64,000 nt of DNA from a virus. The notes beneath the pieces are model-generated. The model ran no database searches. It was not told where the DNA came from and worked only from the letters and a program-made list of their open reading frames with translations. Numbering within the stretch: position 1 is the stretch's first letter; each line of letters starts with the position of its first letter. The position numbers and the translations under genes were made by a program. The DNA is taken from the IMG/VR virus record IMGVR_UViG_3300031578_000004, positions 62,001 through 126,000 of that record. The stretch is one strand, 5' to 3'. Positions 2,381-30,700 of this stretch are shown here, piece after piece.

Positions 2381-2510
2381 ATAAACTCCTTAAAATCTAC
2401 CTGCTATTTCTAGTTCAGGATTTATGATTTTTCCTCTGCTCTGTATTTTCAAGGGCTTGCAACCTTATAACATTGCTGTTATGCTACATTAGAGGAAGGG
2501 CAAAAGTCCT

Positions 2511-2789
2511 TTACTCCTCTATAAATTCCTTCATCATATCATTTAATTCTTCATAACATATTCTAGTTGATATATATTTTATATTGTCTGGTGTTCTGTC
2601 TTCCTGCATATAATTAGCTTTTATAAATGCTACATATGGCTTTTTGCCTTTGTATGTTTTCATAAATTCTACTGCTGCTCTATATAGTGGTTCATCGTTA
2701 TTAATCCACAAACTAATATTCCAAGTCTGTCTGTTTTTCCATCCGTTGTATGTTGTGTCTGCTTTTGTGTTTATGTTTGTATTTGTCAT
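2511..2789 (-). CDS. Small conserved phage protein (NGWKNRQTWN motif)
   Basis: 92 residues with the signature YNGWKNRQTWNISLWINN followed by DEPLYRAAVEFM. I recall this block from many small phage and plasmid proteins of unknown role. The protein is acidic and helical towards the C-terminus. The start lies about 8 bases after AAAAGGAG on the minus strand. Confidence 0.7.
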   Translation of the reverse strand: MTNTNINTKADTTYNGWKNRQTWNISLWINNDEPLYRAAVEFMKTYKGKKPYVAFIKANYMQEDRTPDNIKYISTRICYEELNDMMKEFIEE

Positions 2790-3167
2790 TTTTAAAACTC
2801 CTTTTAAAAACAGCGTGCCTGTTAAGGTTCACGGCTTATGTTTTATTAACTATCTTTAGTATAAACCTTTTTATTTAGTATGTCAATACTATTATATGAA
2901 GTATTTTAAAAAATATTCAAGTATTTTTATTTACTTTTAGATGCTCCAATACTGATATATAATATTTAAAAATCATCAATAGTAAACCAATTCATAATAG
3001 CATTATATACCTTTAGGTTAACGCTAAGATAATTCAAAATAGAATTGTTGATAATTAATATTATATTTTGGTGCTGGCTGCATCCTCCTGTAAATTTAAA
3101 ACGCTGTAATTGATTGTAATCGATTGTTTAATGATTGTTTAATTTTGAATTTGGATTTTATAGACTG
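2790..3167. other. Gene-free AT-rich spacer
   Basis: No ORF with a credible ribosome-binding site. It holds the 13-base word ATTATATACCTTT at 3002-3014, which recurs with one mismatch at 5003 and 7263, and a TGCATCCTCCTG word near 3078 echoed by GCATCCTG words at about 6308 and 7559. Confidence 0.5.
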
Positions 3168-3377
3168 TTATATCACTTCTATTACTTCAAATATTTCTGC
3201 ATTCCTCAGCATACTAACAAAACAATGTGCATATTCTTTTGTTCTTTGATTTAATGCTATATACTCATTATAGTCATTTTTAGATATATGCACTATATCC
3301 TCTTTTTTGGTCATATTGGTATCAATTAACATTTTCCCTATTATTTGATTAAATTTTCTTGGTATTTTGTTATTCAT
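3168..3377 (-). CDS. Hypothetical protein (69 aa)
   Basis: Start MNNKIPRKFNQIIGKM, preceded by an AAGGAGAG ribosome-binding site on the minus strand. Basic N-terminus and a helical middle; no cysteine pairs, signal or membrane segment. Not recognised. The tidy Shine-Dalgarno and its place among similar small genes support it as real. Confidence 0.55.
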   Translation of the reverse strand: MNNKIPRKFNQIIGKMLIDTNMTKKEDIVHISKNDYNEYIALNQRTKEYAHCFVSMLRNAEIFEVIEVI

Positions 3378-3607
3378 TTTTATACTCTCCTTTTAATATT
3401 TATTTTGATAAAATACTTTATTTATTCAATTATTATATAATAACATTGTTTAACTTTACTGTAATAAATTTTATTATCATTTATACTTTGTTGTCTATAC
3501 TCTGCATCTTTTGGAAGATTTTTAACAGTATGTTTACGAAATGGATTTTGCGATATTTTTTTTATTATCATTTATATATCACTCCTTAATATTTTATTAA
3601 AGCTTTG

Positions 3608-3629
3608 AAAGAGGTATTTCTACCTCTTA
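3608..3629 (-). terminator. Hairpin after the 56-aa gene
   Basis: The minus strand reads AAGAGGTA, loop GAAA, TACCTCTT, a perfect 8-bp stem three bases after the stop of the gene at 3632. The U-run is weak, so it may be an inefficient terminator or a protective 3-prime hairpin. Confidence 0.55.
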
Positions 3630-3631
3630 TT

Positions 3632-3802
3632 TTAAAATGCTTGATTATGATTTATATAAGCGTGTGCCATACTGTGAAGTTTTGTTCTTGTCGTATAGTC
3701 AAATTGCTCTATGTATTGTCTTGTTTGTTCGCTCCAGTATCCTGTGTTATCTAATATTTGTTTTAAGTCTGCTTTAACTTGTTTTGTGATTCTGTTTTTC
3801 AT
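3632..3802 (-). CDS. Hypothetical protein (56 aa)
   Basis: The start was chosen at 3802 because TCAGGAGACGAAAAC precedes that ATG. The frame extends 22 codons upstream to 3868 without a ribosome-binding site. The product MKNRITKQVKADLKQILDNT then continues GYWSEQTRQYIEQFDYTTRT. Highly basic and helical. Not recognised; a DNA- or RNA-binding role is possible on charge alone. Confidence 0.55.
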   Translation of the reverse strand: MKNRITKQVKADLKQILDNTGYWSEQTRQYIEQFDYTTRTKLHSMAHAYINHNQAF

Positions 3803-3908
3803 GTTTTCGTCTCCTGAATTTTTATATCTTATGTCTATTATATTATAGTATGTTTGGTTTAATGTCAATATATATTTTTATATCATATGTCCTTTAAATT
3901 GTCATAAA

Positions 3909-3941
3909 ATAAAAACCTCTTGAATATCTACAAAAGGTTTA
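3909..3941 (-). terminator. Intergenic hairpin with U-run
   Basis: On the minus strand AAACCTTTTG pairs with CAAGAGGTTT and is followed by TTATTTTA. It lies between two minus-strand genes, downstream of the terminator at 3980-4001, so it may act as a second terminator for the gene starting at 4258. Confidence 0.5.
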
Positions 3942-3979
3942 AAATGTTTTGACCAAATTGTTATTTCATGGGAACAAAG

Positions 3980-4001
3980 AAAAAAGGCTTCCCAGCCTTT
4001 T
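3980..4001 (-). terminator. Rho-independent terminator
   Basis: The minus strand has stem AAGGCT/AAGCCTT around a GGG loop followed by TTTTTTC, directly after the stop of the gene at 4004-4258. Confidence 0.75.
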
Positions 4002-4003
4002 AA

Positions 4004-4258
4004 CTATTTATTGCAATATCTTTTTAATCCTTCTTCTCTTGCTTCATCGTTATAAGGTTTTAATAATTCCATTGCTTGTTTATTTGATATTCCCGTGAAT
4101 TCATTTTCTGATATTTGTTTATTATATTCAACTCCATCTATTATTAAATGTACTCCGCAACCTTGTGTTACAAATAATTTAACTTCATGTTTGGTTAAAT
4201 AATTAATGTTAGATATAACAGTTTCTAAATATTTTATTGATATTCTATGTTGTTTCAT
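4004..4258 (-). CDS. Hypothetical protein (84 aa)
   Basis: AAAGGAGCTG precedes the ATG on the minus strand. Alpha/beta protein with a single GCG turn (TQGCGVHLIIDGVEYNKQ) and a basic C-terminus ending RYCNK. No known motif. Own terminator immediately downstream. Confidence 0.55.
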   Translation of the reverse strand: MKQHRISIKYLETVISNINYLTKHEVKLFVTQGCGVHLIIDGVEYNKQISENEFTGISNKQAMELLKPYNDEAREEGLKRYCNK

Positions 4259-4402
4259 TTTTATTCAGCTCCTTTTAATATGTATTAATTATCTTAATTA
4301 TAAATCTTAATATAGTATATGTCAACAATTATTTTTATATACATTGTACTTTAAATTAATATTTCAATAAAATACAGATTTTGAGATAAATTTTAGTAAA
4401 TA

Positions 4403-4421
4403 AAAAAGGCTTTACGCCTTA
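4403..4421 (-). terminator. Rho-independent terminator
   Basis: Minus-strand stem AAGGC/GCCTT with loop GTAAA and then TTTTTTATTT. It overlaps the last bases of the gene ending at 4419. Confidence 0.75.
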
Positions 4422-4796
4422 ATTATTTATTTTTGCATATTCTTCAGATTCCCTTAATTTTTTAATTACAAATTGTTTAATGTCATGTTCATCATTTAAA
4501 TCATTTGTAATATAGTCGTTAATCATATTATAAATTTCTGATTCTTCAAGTTCAATTTCTTCTGCTAGTTTTATTATTTCTTCTGCATCATTTTCGTAGT
4601 TTGTAATATATTCTTTCCACCAGTCAAAATCTTCTTCTACCATTTCATAATTTTCGGTTTCATCATTCCAAAAATCTGATGCTGTTATTAGGTCTGCTGT
4701 ATATTCTATTCCATTTATACCTATAATAGTCAAATCTTTAATTTCAGAACAAACCGTATTACCCCTTTTACCAATTGTTTTTACTCTAATTTTCAT
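4419..4796 (-). CDS. Hypothetical acidic protein (125 aa)
   Basis: The start was chosen at 4796, where GAAGGAAT lies five bases upstream; an upstream ATG at 4814 contains that ribosome-binding site inside its own codons. N-terminal 40 residues form beta strands (KIRVKTIGKRGNTV, LTIIGINGIEYTADL). The remainder is strongly acidic and helical with a WNDETENYEMVEEDFDWWKE block. Such small acidic phage proteins sometimes mimic DNA or bind host factors, but nothing specific is recognised. Confidence 0.55.
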   Translation of the reverse strand: MKIRVKTIGKRGNTVCSEIKDLTIIGINGIEYTADLITASDFWNDETENYEMVEEDFDWWKEYITNYENDAEEIIKLAEEIELEESEIYNMINDYITNDLNDEHDIKQFVIKKLRESEEYAKINN

Positions 4797-4814
4797 TTTT
4801 ATTCCTTCTTTCAT

Positions 4815-5199
4815 TTTTTATTTATTTGTTGATTTTACTAATTATAACATATCAATAATTTTATTGTCAATAGTATTTTATGTAGTTTTATATTATTTAT
4901 GCATGTTTTTAAAATATATTTTTATATAGTTTTTTTGTGTAGATATTATAGATATTTTATATCAATATTAATAGATAAATTATAATTAATTTTATATAAT
5001 GTATTATATGCCTTTGTAACGTCATAGGATTGATTTTAAGCGTGTTTGGTGATAGTATTTGTGTATAAGGTTTAAAATAAGCTGGTAGAATAAATTATGA
5101 TGCTTTGTTTTTGTTGTTGTTATACTCTGTTATATGTATTTTTCGCTGATATAGAATAACGTGGCTGTTATAGCGTGGCTGTTATACTGATATTTTAGG
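4815..5199. other. Gene-free spacer with repeated words
   Basis: Very AT-rich. It contains ATTATATGCCTTT at 5003-5015 (also at 7263) and two adjacent GTGGCTGTTATA words at 5161-5187, the reverse of the CTATAACAGC element seen near 0.7 kb. No credible coding. Confidence 0.5.
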
Positions 5200-5236
5200 A
5201 AATAAAAACAGACTCAACTATTTTGTCAAGTCTGTT
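5200..5236 (-). terminator. Rho-independent terminator
   Basis: The minus strand has ACAGACTTGAC pairing with the AGTCTGT side of the hairpin, then TTTTATTTCC. It follows the gene ending at 5250. Confidence 0.7.
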
Positions 5237-5249
5237 ATAGTGATTCTGT

Positions 5250-5522
5250 TTATATTTTGCTTATTGTTTTATATATTGGTGTTATTGATATTATTAAATC
5301 CTCATAGCTGTTAATGGCTTTTGTTATATATTCTTTTGTTTGTTTCCACGTTTCCATTTTATCAATTTTAAAAGATTGTCTATAATCAGAGCCGTCAAAA
5401 CTTATATGACTTTTTATAGTTGTATTAAAATTTTCTATAAACCAGTTTATTTTGTTTATGTTTTTTGATGTGCATCTTATAATAAAATATTCTAGTTCAT
5501 TTTTATATAGATATTTATTCAT
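5250..5522 (-). CDS. Hypothetical protein (90 aa)
   Basis: The start was set at 5522 because AAAGGAGTGTATAAA precedes that ATG; an in-frame ATG at 5531 overlaps the Shine-Dalgarno. Predicted alpha/beta fold: LEYFIIRCTSKNINKINW, IENFNTTIKSHISFDGSD, then a helix and DLIISITPIYKTISKI. No motif recognised. Confidence 0.5.
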   Translation of the reverse strand: MNKYLYKNELEYFIIRCTSKNINKINWFIENFNTTIKSHISFDGSDYRQSFKIDKMETWKQTKEYITKAINSYEDLIISITPIYKTISKI

Positions 5523-5624
5523 TTTATACACTCCTTTATATATTATAGTGATTCTGTTATACTATTATTTCACGCTACAATCTTTTTTAAGCTTCTGTTA
5601 TTGTTATAATACATTTTTTTTATA

Positions 5625-6002
5625 TTATTTTAGAATAATACTTTTATTTTCAAGTTTTGCTATAAATGTTTTGATTATTTCAATTCTAGCATTAATCATA
5701 TTTTGACTTTCAGAGGTGAATTGTACTTCATCCCTTATATATTCTATCATATCATTGTTTAAAGGTAATATTTTATTGATACTAATATAATTGCATATAT
5801 CCTTCCAAGTATTTATTAAATAGCTGTTATTATCCAGTATAACGTTATTTTCTGCATCTACTATTATGTCATTGCTTAATACTGATTTTAATATTGTTTT
5901 GATTCTGGTTATTGTATTTGAATCTATGAAGTTGTAATGATAGTAATTAGCGTACTCGATTTTATAGGCATCTAAAATGTTTTTTATTTCTGTTTTTGTC
6001 AA
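5625..6002 (-). CDS. Hypothetical protein (125 aa), TTG start
   Basis: Starts with TTG at 6002, about 10 bases after AAAGGAGTG on the minus strand. Mostly helical, no cysteines; segments TEIKNILDAYKIEYANYYHY and TRIKTILKSVLSNDIIVD. Not recognised. Spaced like its neighbours and probably a single-gene transcript. Confidence 0.5.
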   Translation of the reverse strand: MTKTEIKNILDAYKIEYANYYHYNFIDSNTITRIKTILKSVLSNDIIVDAENNVILDNNSYLINTWKDICNYISINKILPLNNDMIEYIRDEVQFTSESQNMINARIEIIKTFIAKLENKSIILK

Positions 6003-6421
6003 TGTGATTCACTCCTTTATATTTGATATCTAAATACTATTATACTCCTATTATATTCAATTGCAATAGTATTATTCAAATATTTTTATATTATTTGTGA
6101 TTTATTTTTTTGTACTATATATAGGTAGAGATTTATTAATTAGCTCTTAACTACTGATATTAGATTGATATTAGATATATTTTATGCATTATATTAGCTA
6201 ATTACTAATATTTGATTATATACGCTGTAAGTATTGCAATATAAGGATTCCTTTTATTTTTGTGAATTAGTGTTAGTATACTAGATAATAGGTTTAATCG
6301 GTTTAAAGGCATCCTGGAGCGTTATGGAGGTATGTTGGAGTTTGTAATTTTATAGTTATTGTTGGTGATTGTTTATGCAGTGGATGTATAAAATTGTGAG
6401 ATGCATTATAATTTTAGGCAA
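6003..6421. other. Gene-free AT-rich spacer
   Basis: No supported ORF. It carries a GGCATCCTGGAGC word near 6307 and TTTATGCATTATATT near 6181, which is repeated near 7522. Possibly untranslated leader or remnant sequence. Confidence 0.4.
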
Positions 6422-8512: not shown

Positions 8513-8968
8513 ATGAAAAAATCAATTTTTAAACGTTGGTGGTTTTGGGTAATTATTGTTGTAGTTTTAATAGGTGCGATTAGTTCGCAAGGGGGAAATG
8601 ATGTAACTCCAACACAAAGCACAGCTGCACCAGCTCCGGTAAAAGAGGTAATGCCAGAAGTTGTTGTTACTGCAGCAGACCTTTCTGCAGCTTTTGAAGC
8701 TAATGAAGTAAAAGCAAATAAGGATTATAAAGATAAATTAGCTGAAATTACAGGAACAGTTGACAGTGTCGGTGAAATGCTAGGTCAGACATTTGTAGTG
8801 TTATCATCTGGTAAAGATTTTTCAATTGTGAATGTTCAATGTTTTTTTGATGATAAAGCAGAAATAGATAAAATTGCTGAACTTAATAAAGGAGATACAG
8901 TTACTATTATGGGAAATATTGATGGAATGTCGATGAACGTAGGAGTAAATGGTTGCATTCTTAAATAA
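8513..8968 (+). CDS. Membrane-anchored tRNA_anti-like OB-fold protein
   Basis: 151 residues. One N-terminal membrane anchor (WWFWVIIVVVLIGAISS, residues 9-26), then a Thr/Ala/Pro linker. From about residue 60 there is an OB-fold domain of the tRNA_anti-like family: ADLSAAFEANEVKANKDYKD, LAEITGTVDSVG, FSIVNVQCFF, then KGDTVTIMGNIDG and a terminal GCILK. Such proteins are exported or membrane-tethered in Firmicutes and their role is unknown. GGGGGAAACAAA precedes the ATG. Less AT-rich than the phage genes, suggesting host-derived cargo. Confidence 0.8.
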   Translation: MKKSIFKRWWFWVIIVVVLIGAISSQGGNDVTPTQSTAAPAPVKEVMPEVVVTAADLSAAFEANEVKANKDYKDKLAEITGTVDSVGEMLGQTFVVLSSGKDFSIVNVQCFFDDKAEIDKIAELNKGDTVTIMGNIDGMSMNVGVNGCILK

Positions 8969-9128: not shown

Positions 9129-9998
9129 TTACCTTAATAATTGAAGTACACCTTGTGGAGCTTGGTTTGCTTGAGCTAACATAGCTGTTGCTGCTTGATT
9201 AAGGATGTTATTCTTGCTGAACTCCATCATTTCCTTTGCCATGTCTACGTCACGGATTCTAGATTCAGAAGCCGATAAGTTTTCTGATGATGTATCTAGA
9301 TTCTTAATAGTATGTTCAAGTCTATTTTGCAATGCACCTAATTGTGATCTTTGTGTAGAAACTTGACTGATAGCTTCGTCGATAGCACCCAATTGATTGT
9401 CAAAAGATGTAAGGGTGCCGGATGCTCCAAAAGTTTCAACATCTATAGTATCCATTGTTAAAGACGAAGCAGGGGTGGCACCAATTGTACCTAATGCATC
9501 AGAGCCCATATCTGCCACGTTTATTTTTAACGTTTGACCCGCGTTAGCGCCAATTTGTAAATCAATACTAACAGCTGAATAAGCTCCATTCAACAAAGTT
9601 TTTCCATTGAATTCTGTTCTGTCTGAAATTCCTGTAATTTCATCTGATAAAGCAGTTATCTCAGTTTGAATTGCTGCTAAATCTTCATCTGCGTTTGTTC
9701 CGTTACCAGCTTGAACAACTAGCTCACGCATACGTTGCAAAATTGCATGTGATTCGTTTAATGCACCTTCTGCCGTTTGTATCAATGAAATACCATCTTG
9801 TGAGTTTCTTGAAGCTTGATTTAACCCTCTGATTTGACCTCTCATTTTTTCTGAGATAGAAAGACCAGCAGCGTCATCTCCTGCTCTATTGATTCTTGAA
9901 CCTGATGATAACTTCTCCATTGACTTGGCATTGGCATTTGCATTGATACCTAATTGTCTGCTTGTGTTCATTGCCATTATGTTCGTGTTTATTCTCAT
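9129..9998 (-). CDS. fliC: Flagellin
   Basis: 289 residues. Complete D0/D1 architecture: N-terminal MRINTNIMAMNTSRQLG, SSGSRINRAGDDAAGLSISE and RNSQDGISLIQTAEGAL; a short variable centre (about 150-200); and the C-terminal GALQNRLEHTIKNL, ESRIRDVDMAKEMMEF and ending QAPQGVLQLLR. It polymerises as the flagellar filament after export by the flagellar type III system. Size is close to short Firmicute flagellins such as Hag. The gene is visibly richer in G and C than its surroundings. It sits 68 bases downstream of csrA with a CsrA-type site in its leader, and has AGGAGG 8 bases before the ATG. No FliW, FlgL or FliD neighbour is present, so the unit looks transplanted. Confidence 0.97.
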   Translation of the reverse strand: MRINTNIMAMNTSRQLGINANANAKSMEKLSSGSRINRAGDDAAGLSISEKMRGQIRGLNQASRNSQDGISLIQTAEGALNESHAILQRMRELVVQAGNGTNADEDLAAIQTEITALSDEITGISDRTEFNGKTLLNGAYSAVSIDLQIGANAGQTLKINVADMGSDALGTIGATPASSLTMDTIDVETFGASGTLTSFDNQLGAIDEAISQVSTQRSQLGALQNRLEHTIKNLDTSSENLSASESRIRDVDMAKEMMEFSKNNILNQAATAMLAQANQAPQGVLQLLR

Positions 9999-10027
9999 AA
10001 AATTTCCTCCTTAGACGCGTTAATTTA

Positions 10028-10039
10028 CACATCCATGTG
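10028..10039 (-). promoter_or_regulatory. CsrA-binding site in the flagellin leader
   Basis: The minus-strand transcript reads CACAUGGAUGUG: a 5-bp stem with GG at the loop. It contains ACAUGGAUGU, matching the CsrA SELEX core ACARGGAUGU except at the R position. It sits about 20 bases upstream of the flagellin AAGGAGG, which can form a second GGA site, as in the Bacillus hag leader. Confidence 0.7.
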
Positions 10040-10066
10040 ATTTATTTACAAACTGATATTATCAGT

Positions 10067-10285
10067 CTATATCGATATTAAAGGTTTGACTAATTCTGTT
10101 CTCAAAATTTGTATACTCTTTGGAGCATCTATTGCTACTCTAAACAAGTCACCACTTGTTTTTAGAAAGAATATAGAAATTACTCCATCTGAGGTTTGAA
10201 ACTTGATTGACTCACCAACTTTTCTACCTAAAACCAACCCTCCTATGTTGTTTACTTTTGATGATTTCTTTATTATATTGCTCAT
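10067..10285 (-). CDS. csrA: CsrA-family RNA-binding translational regulator
   Basis: 72 residues. The core GLVLGRKVGESIKFQT, then GVISIFFLKTSGDLFRVAID and APKSIQILRTEL, matches CsrA: the LxxRKVGE strand, the VAIDAPKSI strand and the RNA-contacting Arg in ILRTEL. An extra 15-residue N-terminal stretch (MSNIIKKSSKVNNIG) precedes the usual first strand. The ATG at 10285 has an ideal AGGAGG about 8 bases upstream, so the extension is probably translated. CsrA dimers block translation by masking ribosome-binding sites; in Bacillus the target is hag, controlled by FliW. Here the flagellin gene with a matching site lies immediately downstream. Confidence 0.88.
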   Translation of the reverse strand: MSNIIKKSSKVNNIGGLVLGRKVGESIKFQTSDGVISIFFLKTSGDLFRVAIDAPKSIQILRTELVKPLISI

Positions 10286-10797
10286 TTGTTTTCCTCCTTG
10301 ATTGATTCGGTAGTTTATTTAGTAGTTCCATCTACAAAATTTGTTGTTTTGTTGTCCTTAGTTATTATATCGGAATATTTTAATAATACATTAGTGATTT
10401 TTTTAGATTTTTTTAATATAAGTGGAATGTTCGTTTTTACTTATTTATCTCAACCTCAACCGTAACCTTCTTGCCCTTTTCCCCCGACCTTATAATCCCC
10501 ACGATATAGCAGTGTTACTGTCTCCACGTTCCTCCGTTTTTAATACCATTTTATCACATCTACAATTTAAAAACCGTTCTCTGTAGCAAAACTAATTTGT
10601 CAGCGTACAAACTGCGGGGAATTAAACCCGTCTTTGATTAAAGCAACCCCCATTATGTCAATTATATAGCATCAACTGTACAATGTAAGCATTGATAAAA
10701 ACGACACAGAATTGATTGTAGATTAATTCAATTTTAAATTGTCACCTTTCAATATCATTTAAACATGACCTATATTTTAATATTTTTTTACTCTGCA
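10286..10797. other. csrA upstream region with gene remnants
   Basis: Contains the csrA promoter near 10364. Around 10440-10510 the minus strand can be read as GIIRSGEKGKKVTVEVEINK plus stop, which looks like the C-terminal scrap of a lost protein. No intact gene is seen. Confidence 0.4.
10364..10395 (-). promoter_or_regulatory. Promoter of csrA-flagellin, SigD-like
   Basis: Minus strand TCCGATATAATAAC combines a SigD-like -10 (consensus GCCGATAT) with an overlapping TATAAT. TAAT lies 15 bases upstream at the SigD -35 position. Motility-sigma or housekeeping control both fit. Confidence 0.5.
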
Positions 10798-29609: not shown

Positions 29610-30700
29610 TTTAAAAAACGTGGTGGCGGAATAGATTTCTATTAGCATGAGTGCGAGTAGAGAGGTCTAGGAATGACCAGTAGACGCAAGCAAATTACAG
29701 GTTCGATGTGCTGAACGCACGTGGGTATAGCCAATATCCCACAACATGGCGCTGTCAAAAACTGTATGATATGTAGAGTGCAAATCTTTACCCACGTTTA
29801 ACAAATTAATATAAGCCGAAGGGCATTATAAATAAATAGAATATGTGGAAGGGCATCGAAAGAGTAAGTCCAGCCACAATAGAATGAATAGGGTATAGAA
29901 TCCCAACAAAGAAGATTTAACTATCCAGTGTGAGAAATCACACACCTGCCTATAACACAAATAACAGTTTACAAGTTTATATTTTGTGTGAAGAAAAACT
30001 TGTCTGAAACATATATAGTTACCTGTCGTATATGTGAATGGTTTACTGCTTGATAAAAGCAACAGGCAAAACTATTATTTATTTAATAGTCGGTACAATA
30101 TCACCGAATAGTCCTCATGATAGAGGTTTGTCAGAAGCCTACCAAATATCTGCATGGTAAAGCATGTAAAAACTTAGAGTGCGAGGTTTAGAGGAAAAGC
30201 CTTCCAAGATATTGTTTGAGGCAATGCACTTAAAAAACCCTGCTTTTATTACTTACTTGCTTTAGAGCAAGAGATTTTATCACATATTCTACATGTAGAA
30301 CACGAGAGGATATTGGACGTTCTGACATCTTCTCAACCCCTTAATTTTTACTATTTTGAGGATAGAACAGGCAGCTATCACACCATGAAAATGGTCTTAT
30401 AAGAGATGCAGGAGCTATATCAATAAGGATATAGAGTTTATAGATTAGAAATACATTTATAAACTGATTGTCGCCCTGCCAAATAGTTTAATAATCCTAC
30501 AGGGCATGTAATTTTGCTTGTGGAATAACATACATTTTAATGGTGTATCACAAGTTGGTAATATACTTTGTCAGAAGTACAAACTGACCATGTCCGAATT
30601 TGCCTTATATATAATTTTTTATTATACTCCCTCTAAAATACAGGTGCTTACTTGCTAATGGGTGGGCATCTGTATTGATTTAAACTAAAATAAGTAAATA
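29610..30700 (+). ncRNA. Candidate large structured non-coding RNA
   Basis: 1.1 kb with no plus-strand ORF, noticeably richer in G and C than the flanking genes, and full of nested stems: ACGTGGGTA/TACCCACGT enclosing a tRNA-like block (29719-29797), GTGTGA-GAAA-TCACAC (29928-29943), ATAGTT..CCTGT/ACAGG..AACTAT (about 30016-30075), CTTGCT-TTAG-AGCAAG (30256-30271), GCCCTG/CAGGGC (30473-30505), AGTTTATA/TATAAACT near 30435-30465 and CTTGTG..ATACA/TGTAT..CACAAG (about 30518-30555). A tRNA-Leu-like GTGGTGGCGGAAT and GGTTCGA words occur at its 5-prime end. Size, setting in a Firmicute phage and tRNA-like content recall the GOLLD and ROOL ornate RNA classes, but I cannot confirm either. Confidence 0.65.

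What the first reader, a model, noticed from the sequence alone, without database searches (positions are those of the whole stretch)
10028..10285. csrA beside flagellin with a CsrA consensus hairpin in the flagellin leader
CACAUGGAUGUG in the 68-base leader closely matches the CsrA consensus, and the nearby AAGGAGG supplies a second GGA. In Bacillus the same two-site logic controls hag, with FliW as antagonist. Here regulator and target form a two-gene cassette without FliW inside a phage-linked accessory block. It could be a self-limiting flagellin or an interference device for host motility.
Basis: partly seen in the sequence, partly recalled or inferred. Interest (0 to 1): 0.75.

Follow-up and report, generated by a model that had tools for sequence, protein, structure and literature searches.

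The report
Phage CsrA–flagellin operon lacking FliW control
Several unrelated temperate phages of Bacillus-like bacteria carry their own flagellin gene together with a shortened copy of the protein that shuts flagellin production off, which could let the virus change or silence its host's swimming tail.

Summary
In a 130 kb temperate-phage record, csrA (10285-10067, -) precedes a full-length flagellin (9998-9129, -); the 68-base leader holds CACAUGGAUGUG and AAGGAGGA. The record has no FliW.

It is not a one-off. Eight other flagellin-bearing virus records, loci in two Bacillus genomes and five ~200 kb Bacillus elements (one checked: a phage-plasmid) carry csrA directly upstream of flagellin. 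Three features set them apart from host fliW-csrA-hag loci. Phage CsrA keeps the key RNA-contact arginine but lacks the FliW-contact asparagine (0 of 11; hosts 57 of 57). A sigma-D-like promoter lies upstream of csrA, making both genes one operon. Phage CsrAs cluster together, while their flagellins are scattered among host flagellins.

Best reading: a FliW-blind CsrA with a replacement flagellin, acting on the host's flagellin checkpoint, the protein counterpart of the published TldR-fliC flagellin-remodelling prophages. Function is inferred.

The parts
9129..9998 (-). phage flagellin, 289 aa, complete N- and C-terminal (D0/D1) regions, no long inserted middle domain
   Evidence: Pfam Flagellin_N 4.4e-49 and Flagellin_C 8.3e-33; aligned with six viral flagellins
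10067..10285 (-). phage-type CsrA, 72 aa; RNA-contact R6 and R44 equivalents kept; ends at the equivalent of residue 54, before the FliW-contact N55
   Evidence: model matches solved CsrA/RsmE folds, best 5dmb_D (Foldseek E 0.013, prob 1.00), and has no C-terminal helix (mean pLDDT 76.8)
10028..10039 (-). CsrA-consensus-like site CACAUGGAUGUG in the flagellin leader; hairpin possible alone but outcompeted in the leader
10012..10035 (-). rival 9-bp helix UGGAUGUGU/ACGCGUCUA (10027-10035 with 10012-10020) that buries the GGA
10006..10012 (-). AAGGAGG, Shine-Dalgarno of flagellin and second GGA site
10052..10066 (-). AU-rich hairpin ACUGAUAAUAUCAGU just after the csrA stop; role unknown
10322..10335 (-). 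hairpin GUAG[AUGGAA]CUAC with GGA in the loop, in the csrA leader; possible autoregulatory CsrA site
   Evidence: P(GGA in apical loop) 0.93, p = 0.010 against shuffles; coordinates
10292..10299 (-). AAGGAGGA, Shine-Dalgarno of csrA and second GGA site there
10367..10393 (-). sigma-D-like promoter TAAT-15-TCCGATAT upstream of csrA (two mismatches to the recalled consensus TAAA-15-GCCGATAT)
   Evidence: 25 of 1000 shuffles do as well; 15 of 15 related cassettes scanned have one with at most one mismatch

Best explanation
It is a temperate-phage operon that takes over the host flagellin checkpoint. (1) Host sigma-D, active when the cell makes filaments, would transcribe phage csrA and flagellin together (promoter-like site seen, use inferred). 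(2) Phage CsrA would bind GGA sites in hag-type leaders: RNA-contact residues are kept in the window protein, binding is inferred. (3) It lacks the residue and helix by which FliW removes CsrA, so FliW could not lift the repression (residue loss shown, insensitivity inferred). (4) Host hag translation would fall. (5) The phage flagellin, whose ends are intact, would be exported and replace or dilute host flagellin; while unexported it would also hold FliW and so push host CsrA the same way. In the window phage the flagellin's own upstream site is predicted to be masked while the csrA leader site is exposed, which would favour phage flagellin over host flagellin and limit CsrA.
For: Recurrence: csrA directly upstream of flagellin in the window record and in 8 of the 39 other flagellin-bearing virus records tested (two further CsrA-bearing records are set aside as a different kind), in loci of B. 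pumilus (L053) and one more Bacillus species (L137) and in five 200-212 kb Bacillus elements, one of which has terminase, capsid and virion genes. FliW: 0 of 39 virus records and not in the window record. N55: 57 of 57 host CsrA against 0 of 11 phage CsrA (0 of 12 with L034); R44: 57 of 57 and 12 of 12. Published: V51 and N55 are the FliW contacts (PMC7829508, abstract and passages); a CsrA N55D homodimer is not relieved by FliW, and one extra csrA copy in B. subtilis stops swarming even without a measurable rise in CsrA (PMC6529632, passages). Promoter-like site upstream of csrA: 15 of 15 related cassettes with at most one mismatch, the window with two. GGA in an apical loop with P 0.79-1.00 in 9 of 10 phage flagellin leaders, Fisher 2e-7 over all ten, against 3 of the 22 other window leaders that hold a GGA. 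dN/dS 0.12-0.36 for both genes in five pairs (a sixth pair was too alike to judge). Integrase in 9 of 9 records.
Against: No binding, expression or motility data. The window promoter has two mismatches and could be chance (p 0.025). Three close relatives (L010, L053, G014) have lost R6 and K7 of the RNA pocket, so not all cassettes need bind RNA in the usual way. One FliW bound to one subunit suffices to inhibit a CsrA dimer (PMC6529632), so phage-host mixed dimers might still be relieved. 29 of 39 flagellin-bearing virus records have no CsrA, so phage flagellin does not require it. The host of the window phage is unknown.
Confidence: 0.5

Rival explanations
1. Motility brake: FliW-blind CsrA represses host and phage flagellin alike; the phage flagellin mainly ties up FliW, so the carrier loses motility.
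For: Most phage flagellin leaders carry a foldable GGA hairpin plus a GGA at the Shine-Dalgarno. An extra csrA copy stops swarming in B. subtilis (PMC6529632, passages).
Against: Flagellin is kept under purifying selection with intact ends. The Shine-Dalgarno site of phage flagellin has a pyrimidine where the recalled CsrA consensus wants a purine in 11 of 12 cassettes, against 15 of 97 host flagellins; the window is the exception. The window's upstream site is masked.
Confidence: 0.2
2. Self-limiting extra flagellin: CsrA acts only on its own operon, keeping a helper flagellin at a low level; host hag is not touched.
For: The csrA leader also carries a GGA hairpin in some cassettes: P of 0.88 or more in 4 of the 7 leaders that have an upstream GGA, the window among them, out of 10 leaders tested.
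Against: Host hag leaders have the same kind of site (37 of 41 with P of 0.5 or more), so a CsrA that binds one should bind the other.
Confidence: 0.17
3. Captured host csrA-hag pair without a phage function (passenger genes, or a flagellin swapped in by recombination).
For: csrA-hag is the normal host order, and phage flagellins lie among host flagellins, with 9 label changes for 10 rows and at least 6 forced.
Against: Same altered design in unrelated phages: no N55, promoter upstream of csrA, CsrA cluster apart from hosts; dN/dS about 0.2.
Confidence: 0.08

Closest known systems
Hag-FliW-CsrA flagellin homeostasis of Bacillus subtilis (PMC6529632, passages read; Altegoer 2016 and Mukherjee 2011/2016 only recalled or seen as citations)
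   Same: CsrA upstream of hag; hairpin GGA plus Shine-Dalgarno GGA in the hag leader; sigma-D control (recalled)
   Different: FliW absent; CsrA lacks N55 and the C-terminal helix; the sigma-D-like site is upstream of csrA; carried by phages
Flagellin-remodelling prophages with TldR and fliCP (Walker et al. 2026, PMC13418256; abstract and passages read)
   Same: temperate phage carries its own flagellin and a regulator expected to lower host flagellin
   Different: regulator is the RNA-binding protein CsrA, not an RNA-guided TnpB derivative; a TnpB-type zinc-ribbon match is absent from the window record and from 8 of the other 10 records tested
Chromosomal csrA-tldR-fliC loci of Oscillibacter and relatives (same paper, section on CsrA-associated TldRs, passages)
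   Same: csrA linked to fliC; CsrA bound at a stem-loop in the fliC 5' UTR
   Different: described there as chromosomal and with TldR; here phage-borne without TldR. L034 (G030) in my scan looks like this kind (TnpB-type match beside csrA) and was set aside
Phage-encoded CsrA/RsmA (PMC8450108 and PMC7366521, passages)
   Same: CsrA homologues in phages and plasmids are known
   Different: the passages read speak of CRISPR-Cas repression or give no role; none mentions pairing with flagellin or loss of FliW contact

Membership tests
CsrA/RsmA family | Pfam PF02599 above cut-off | tested here: met
   44.6 bits against 27
CsrA/RsmA family | RNA-contact residues R6 and R44 (role recalled) | tested here: met
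   both present in the window protein
CsrA/RsmA family | binds GGA RNA as a dimer | not testable with these tools
   needs gel shift
FliW-controlled CsrA | N55 (and V/I51) in the C-terminal helix | tested here: not met
   window protein ends before position 55 and has L at 51; N in 0 of 11 phage against 57 of 57 host
FliW-controlled CsrA | fliW in the same locus | tested here: not met
   no FliW in the record
hag-type CsrA-regulated leader | GGA hairpin plus GGA at the Shine-Dalgarno | tested here: inconclusive
   both motifs present, hairpin not predicted to fold in the window leader; it folds in the 9 relatives tested
Flagellin | N- and C-terminal helical domains | tested here: met
TldR-fliC flagellin-remodelling prophage | TldR (TnpB-derived) beside fliC | tested here: not met
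   no PF07282 match in the record
TldR-fliC flagellin-remodelling prophage | host flagellin lowered and phage flagellin in the filament | not testable with these tools
   needs lysogens

The most novel reading that the evidence does not exclude
Unrelated temperate phages share a sigma-D operon of a FliW-blind CsrA lineage and a flagellin taken again and again from host lineages; it breaks the host's FliW checkpoint and swaps the filament, a protein-based twin of RNA-guided flagellar remodelling. In some cassettes the operator hairpin lies inside the csrA 3' end, the stretch that encodes the FliW-contact helix in hosts.
Probability: 0.42. Interest if true: 0.85.

Novelty: new variant of a known kind. 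Interest (0 to 1): 0.72.

Why it matters
If right, it would show a second route, by a known translational repressor stripped of its antagonist's docking site, by which phages rewrite the host flagellum. It gives natural FliW-blind CsrA variants to test the partner-switch model, and predicts motility and flagellotropic-phage phenotypes in food and soil Bacillus strains that carry these elements.

Tried and rejected
Looked for CsrA relatives in viral contigs with the window CsrA alone (0 confirmed) and in named phages (none for the window CsrA; EZ-2018a only for the L007 CsrA). A scan with A5 gave 3 loci, all of contigs already held. The loose consensus ACARGGATGT is uninformative by count. My first hairpin score (stem next to loop) gave p 0.057-0.061 for the window and no hairpin for L003; with L005, L007 and L027 left out the combined p is only 0.048, so I went to the ensemble test, which folds whole leaders, gives the window P 0.00 and is the one I rely on. 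Sigma-70 scan: 8 sites where 6.9 are expected; one terminator-like site. One clade of all 11 phage CsrA including L009 is not rejected (AU p 0.275), but the best tree puts L009 with hosts. Rejected: host chromosome; a TldR system; adjacency of csrA and hag as such being unusual.

Set aside: L034/G030 (TnpB-type match beside csrA) and L009/G007 (host-type CsrA, promoter between csrA and flagellin). Both are still in the counts: the '11 phage CsrA' there are the window, L003, L004, L005, L007, L009, L010, L122, L053, L027 and L030. L034, L043 and the E. coli row were dropped from the CsrA tree. Near copies (L010/L053/G014; L126/L128/L135/L136; L004/L137) are not independent.

Full report
WHAT IS THERE. 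The window is part of a 130,358-bp virus record with portal, tape measure, tail fibre and terminase-like genes and both a tyrosine-integrase and a large-serine-recombinase match, so most likely a temperate phage. On the minus strand a 72-aa CsrA (10285-10067) is followed after 68 bases by a 289-aa flagellin (9998-9129). The leader has CACAUGGAUGUG (10039-10028) and AAGGAGGA. The record has no other CsrA or flagellin and no FliW.

HOST BACKGROUND. Of 80 flagellin loci from bacterial genomes, those with csrA mostly show the known order fliW-csrA-hag; 56 loci have a FliW match. So csrA beside hag is ordinary. Host hag leaders carry a hairpin with GGA in the loop: 41 of 43 leaders within 600 nt after csrA have an upstream GGA, and 37 of these 41 put it in an apical loop with P of 0.5 or more.

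RECURRENCE IN PHAGES. Two viral-contig scans with flagellin and two hits in the phage collection gave 39 records other than the window's. Ten have a CsrA match and none a FliW match. Of the ten, G030 has a TnpB-type match beside csrA and looks like the published csrA-tldR-fliC kind; G007 has a host-type CsrA. The other eight (G001, G002, G003, G005, G014, G023, G026, and Bacillus phage EZ-2018a) share the window's design. So do a B. pumilus genome locus (L053), another Bacillus genome (L137) and five elements of 200-212 kb in B. licheniformis, B. paralicheniformis and B. halotolerans; I checked one and it has terminase, major capsid and virion proteins. In 44 Bacillus species genomes every one has a CsrA match and 2 have a second, phage-type one. 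The B. pumilus carrier has host FliW and host CsrA as well. FliW was not searched for in the five large elements.

THREE SHARED DEPARTURES FROM HOSTS. (a) FliW contact. In C. jejuni V51 and N55 are needed for FliW binding, and N55D in B. subtilis prevents it (PMC7829508, passages). Host CsrA: N at 55 in 57 of 57, I or V at 51 in 56 of 57. Phage: N in 0 of 12 (0 of 11 without L034). R44 is kept in all; R6 in 8 of the 11 phage rows that cover it. (b) Promoter. A sigma-D-like site with at most one mismatch lies 57-74 nt before csrA in 15 of 15 related cassettes; the window has a two-mismatch site 108 nt before its ATG. Host loci have such a site (up to three mismatches) within 300 nt of flagellin in 53 of 56. 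(c) Descent. In a 49-column tree 10 of 11 phage CsrA are separated from 57 host CsrA by a branch of 95/92 support; long branches and few columns make this rough. Phage flagellins do not group: 9 changes for 10 rows, at least 6 forced (L009 and L030 are among the ten).

LEADERS. In 9 of 10 phage cassettes tested the upstream GGA sits in an apical loop with P 0.79-1.00 (individual p 0.007-0.060; Fisher over all ten, window included, 2e-7). In G002 and the plasmid-type elements the hairpin lies inside csrA coding sequence, and one pair goes from C-G to U-G to U-A across GACA[AGGA]UGUC, GAUA[AGGA]UGUC and GAUA[AGGA]UAUC. The window is the one exception: a 9-bp helix buries its GGA. Its csrA leader, in contrast, exposes a GGA hairpin (P 0.93, p 0.010). 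In 11 of 12 cassettes the flagellin Shine-Dalgarno site reads CACGGAGGT or CATGGAGGT, with a pyrimidine before GGA where the recalled consensus (ARGGA) has a purine; hosts have a pyrimidine in 15 of 97 (3 of 100 host flagellins had no GGAGG; rows are not independent, and B. pumilus-group hosts share CATGGAGGT). The window keeps AAGGAGGA.

HOW IT MAY WORK. In B. subtilis an added csrA copy stops swarming even when total CsrA does not measurably rise, and CsrA N55D homodimers are not relieved by FliW (PMC6529632, passages). A lysogen with a FliW-blind csrA copy under sigma-D is that situation made natural. Host hag would be held down; the phage flagellin would fill the gap. In this phage the masked leader site could be what lets its own flagellin through; in most others the altered Shine-Dalgarno site may do so. 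All of this is inference from sequence.

LITERATURE. The nearest work is Walker et al. 2026 (PMC13418256; abstract and passages). Searches of the held library showed no paper on a phage csrA-flagellin pair; the library lacks most subscription papers and all preprints.

Noticed in passing
window 30350-30487 (+): skipping-rope RNA (RF02924), 56.5 bits, the only Rfam match in the window.
   Followed up: no
window 8513-8968 (+): tRNA_anti-like protein that also matches PHROG superinfection-exclusion families, next to the cassette.
   Followed up: no
L010, L053, L122 (G014): CsrA of the B. pumilus phage group has lost R6 and K7 of the RNA pocket but keeps R44.
   Followed up: partly
L034 (G030), about 2454-6028: A viral-classed contig with csrA, a TnpB-type protein and a large flagellin, like the published csrA-tldR-fliC loci.
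   Followed up: no
L016, L019, L020, L021, L022, L026, L031: A well-supported cluster (100/100) of viral flagellins without CsrA, several in contigs of 90-330 kb.
   Followed up: no
L126-L128: The 200 kb Bacillus elements carry a gene annotated as an LXG polymorphic toxin with a YezG-family partner near the cassette.
   Followed up: no
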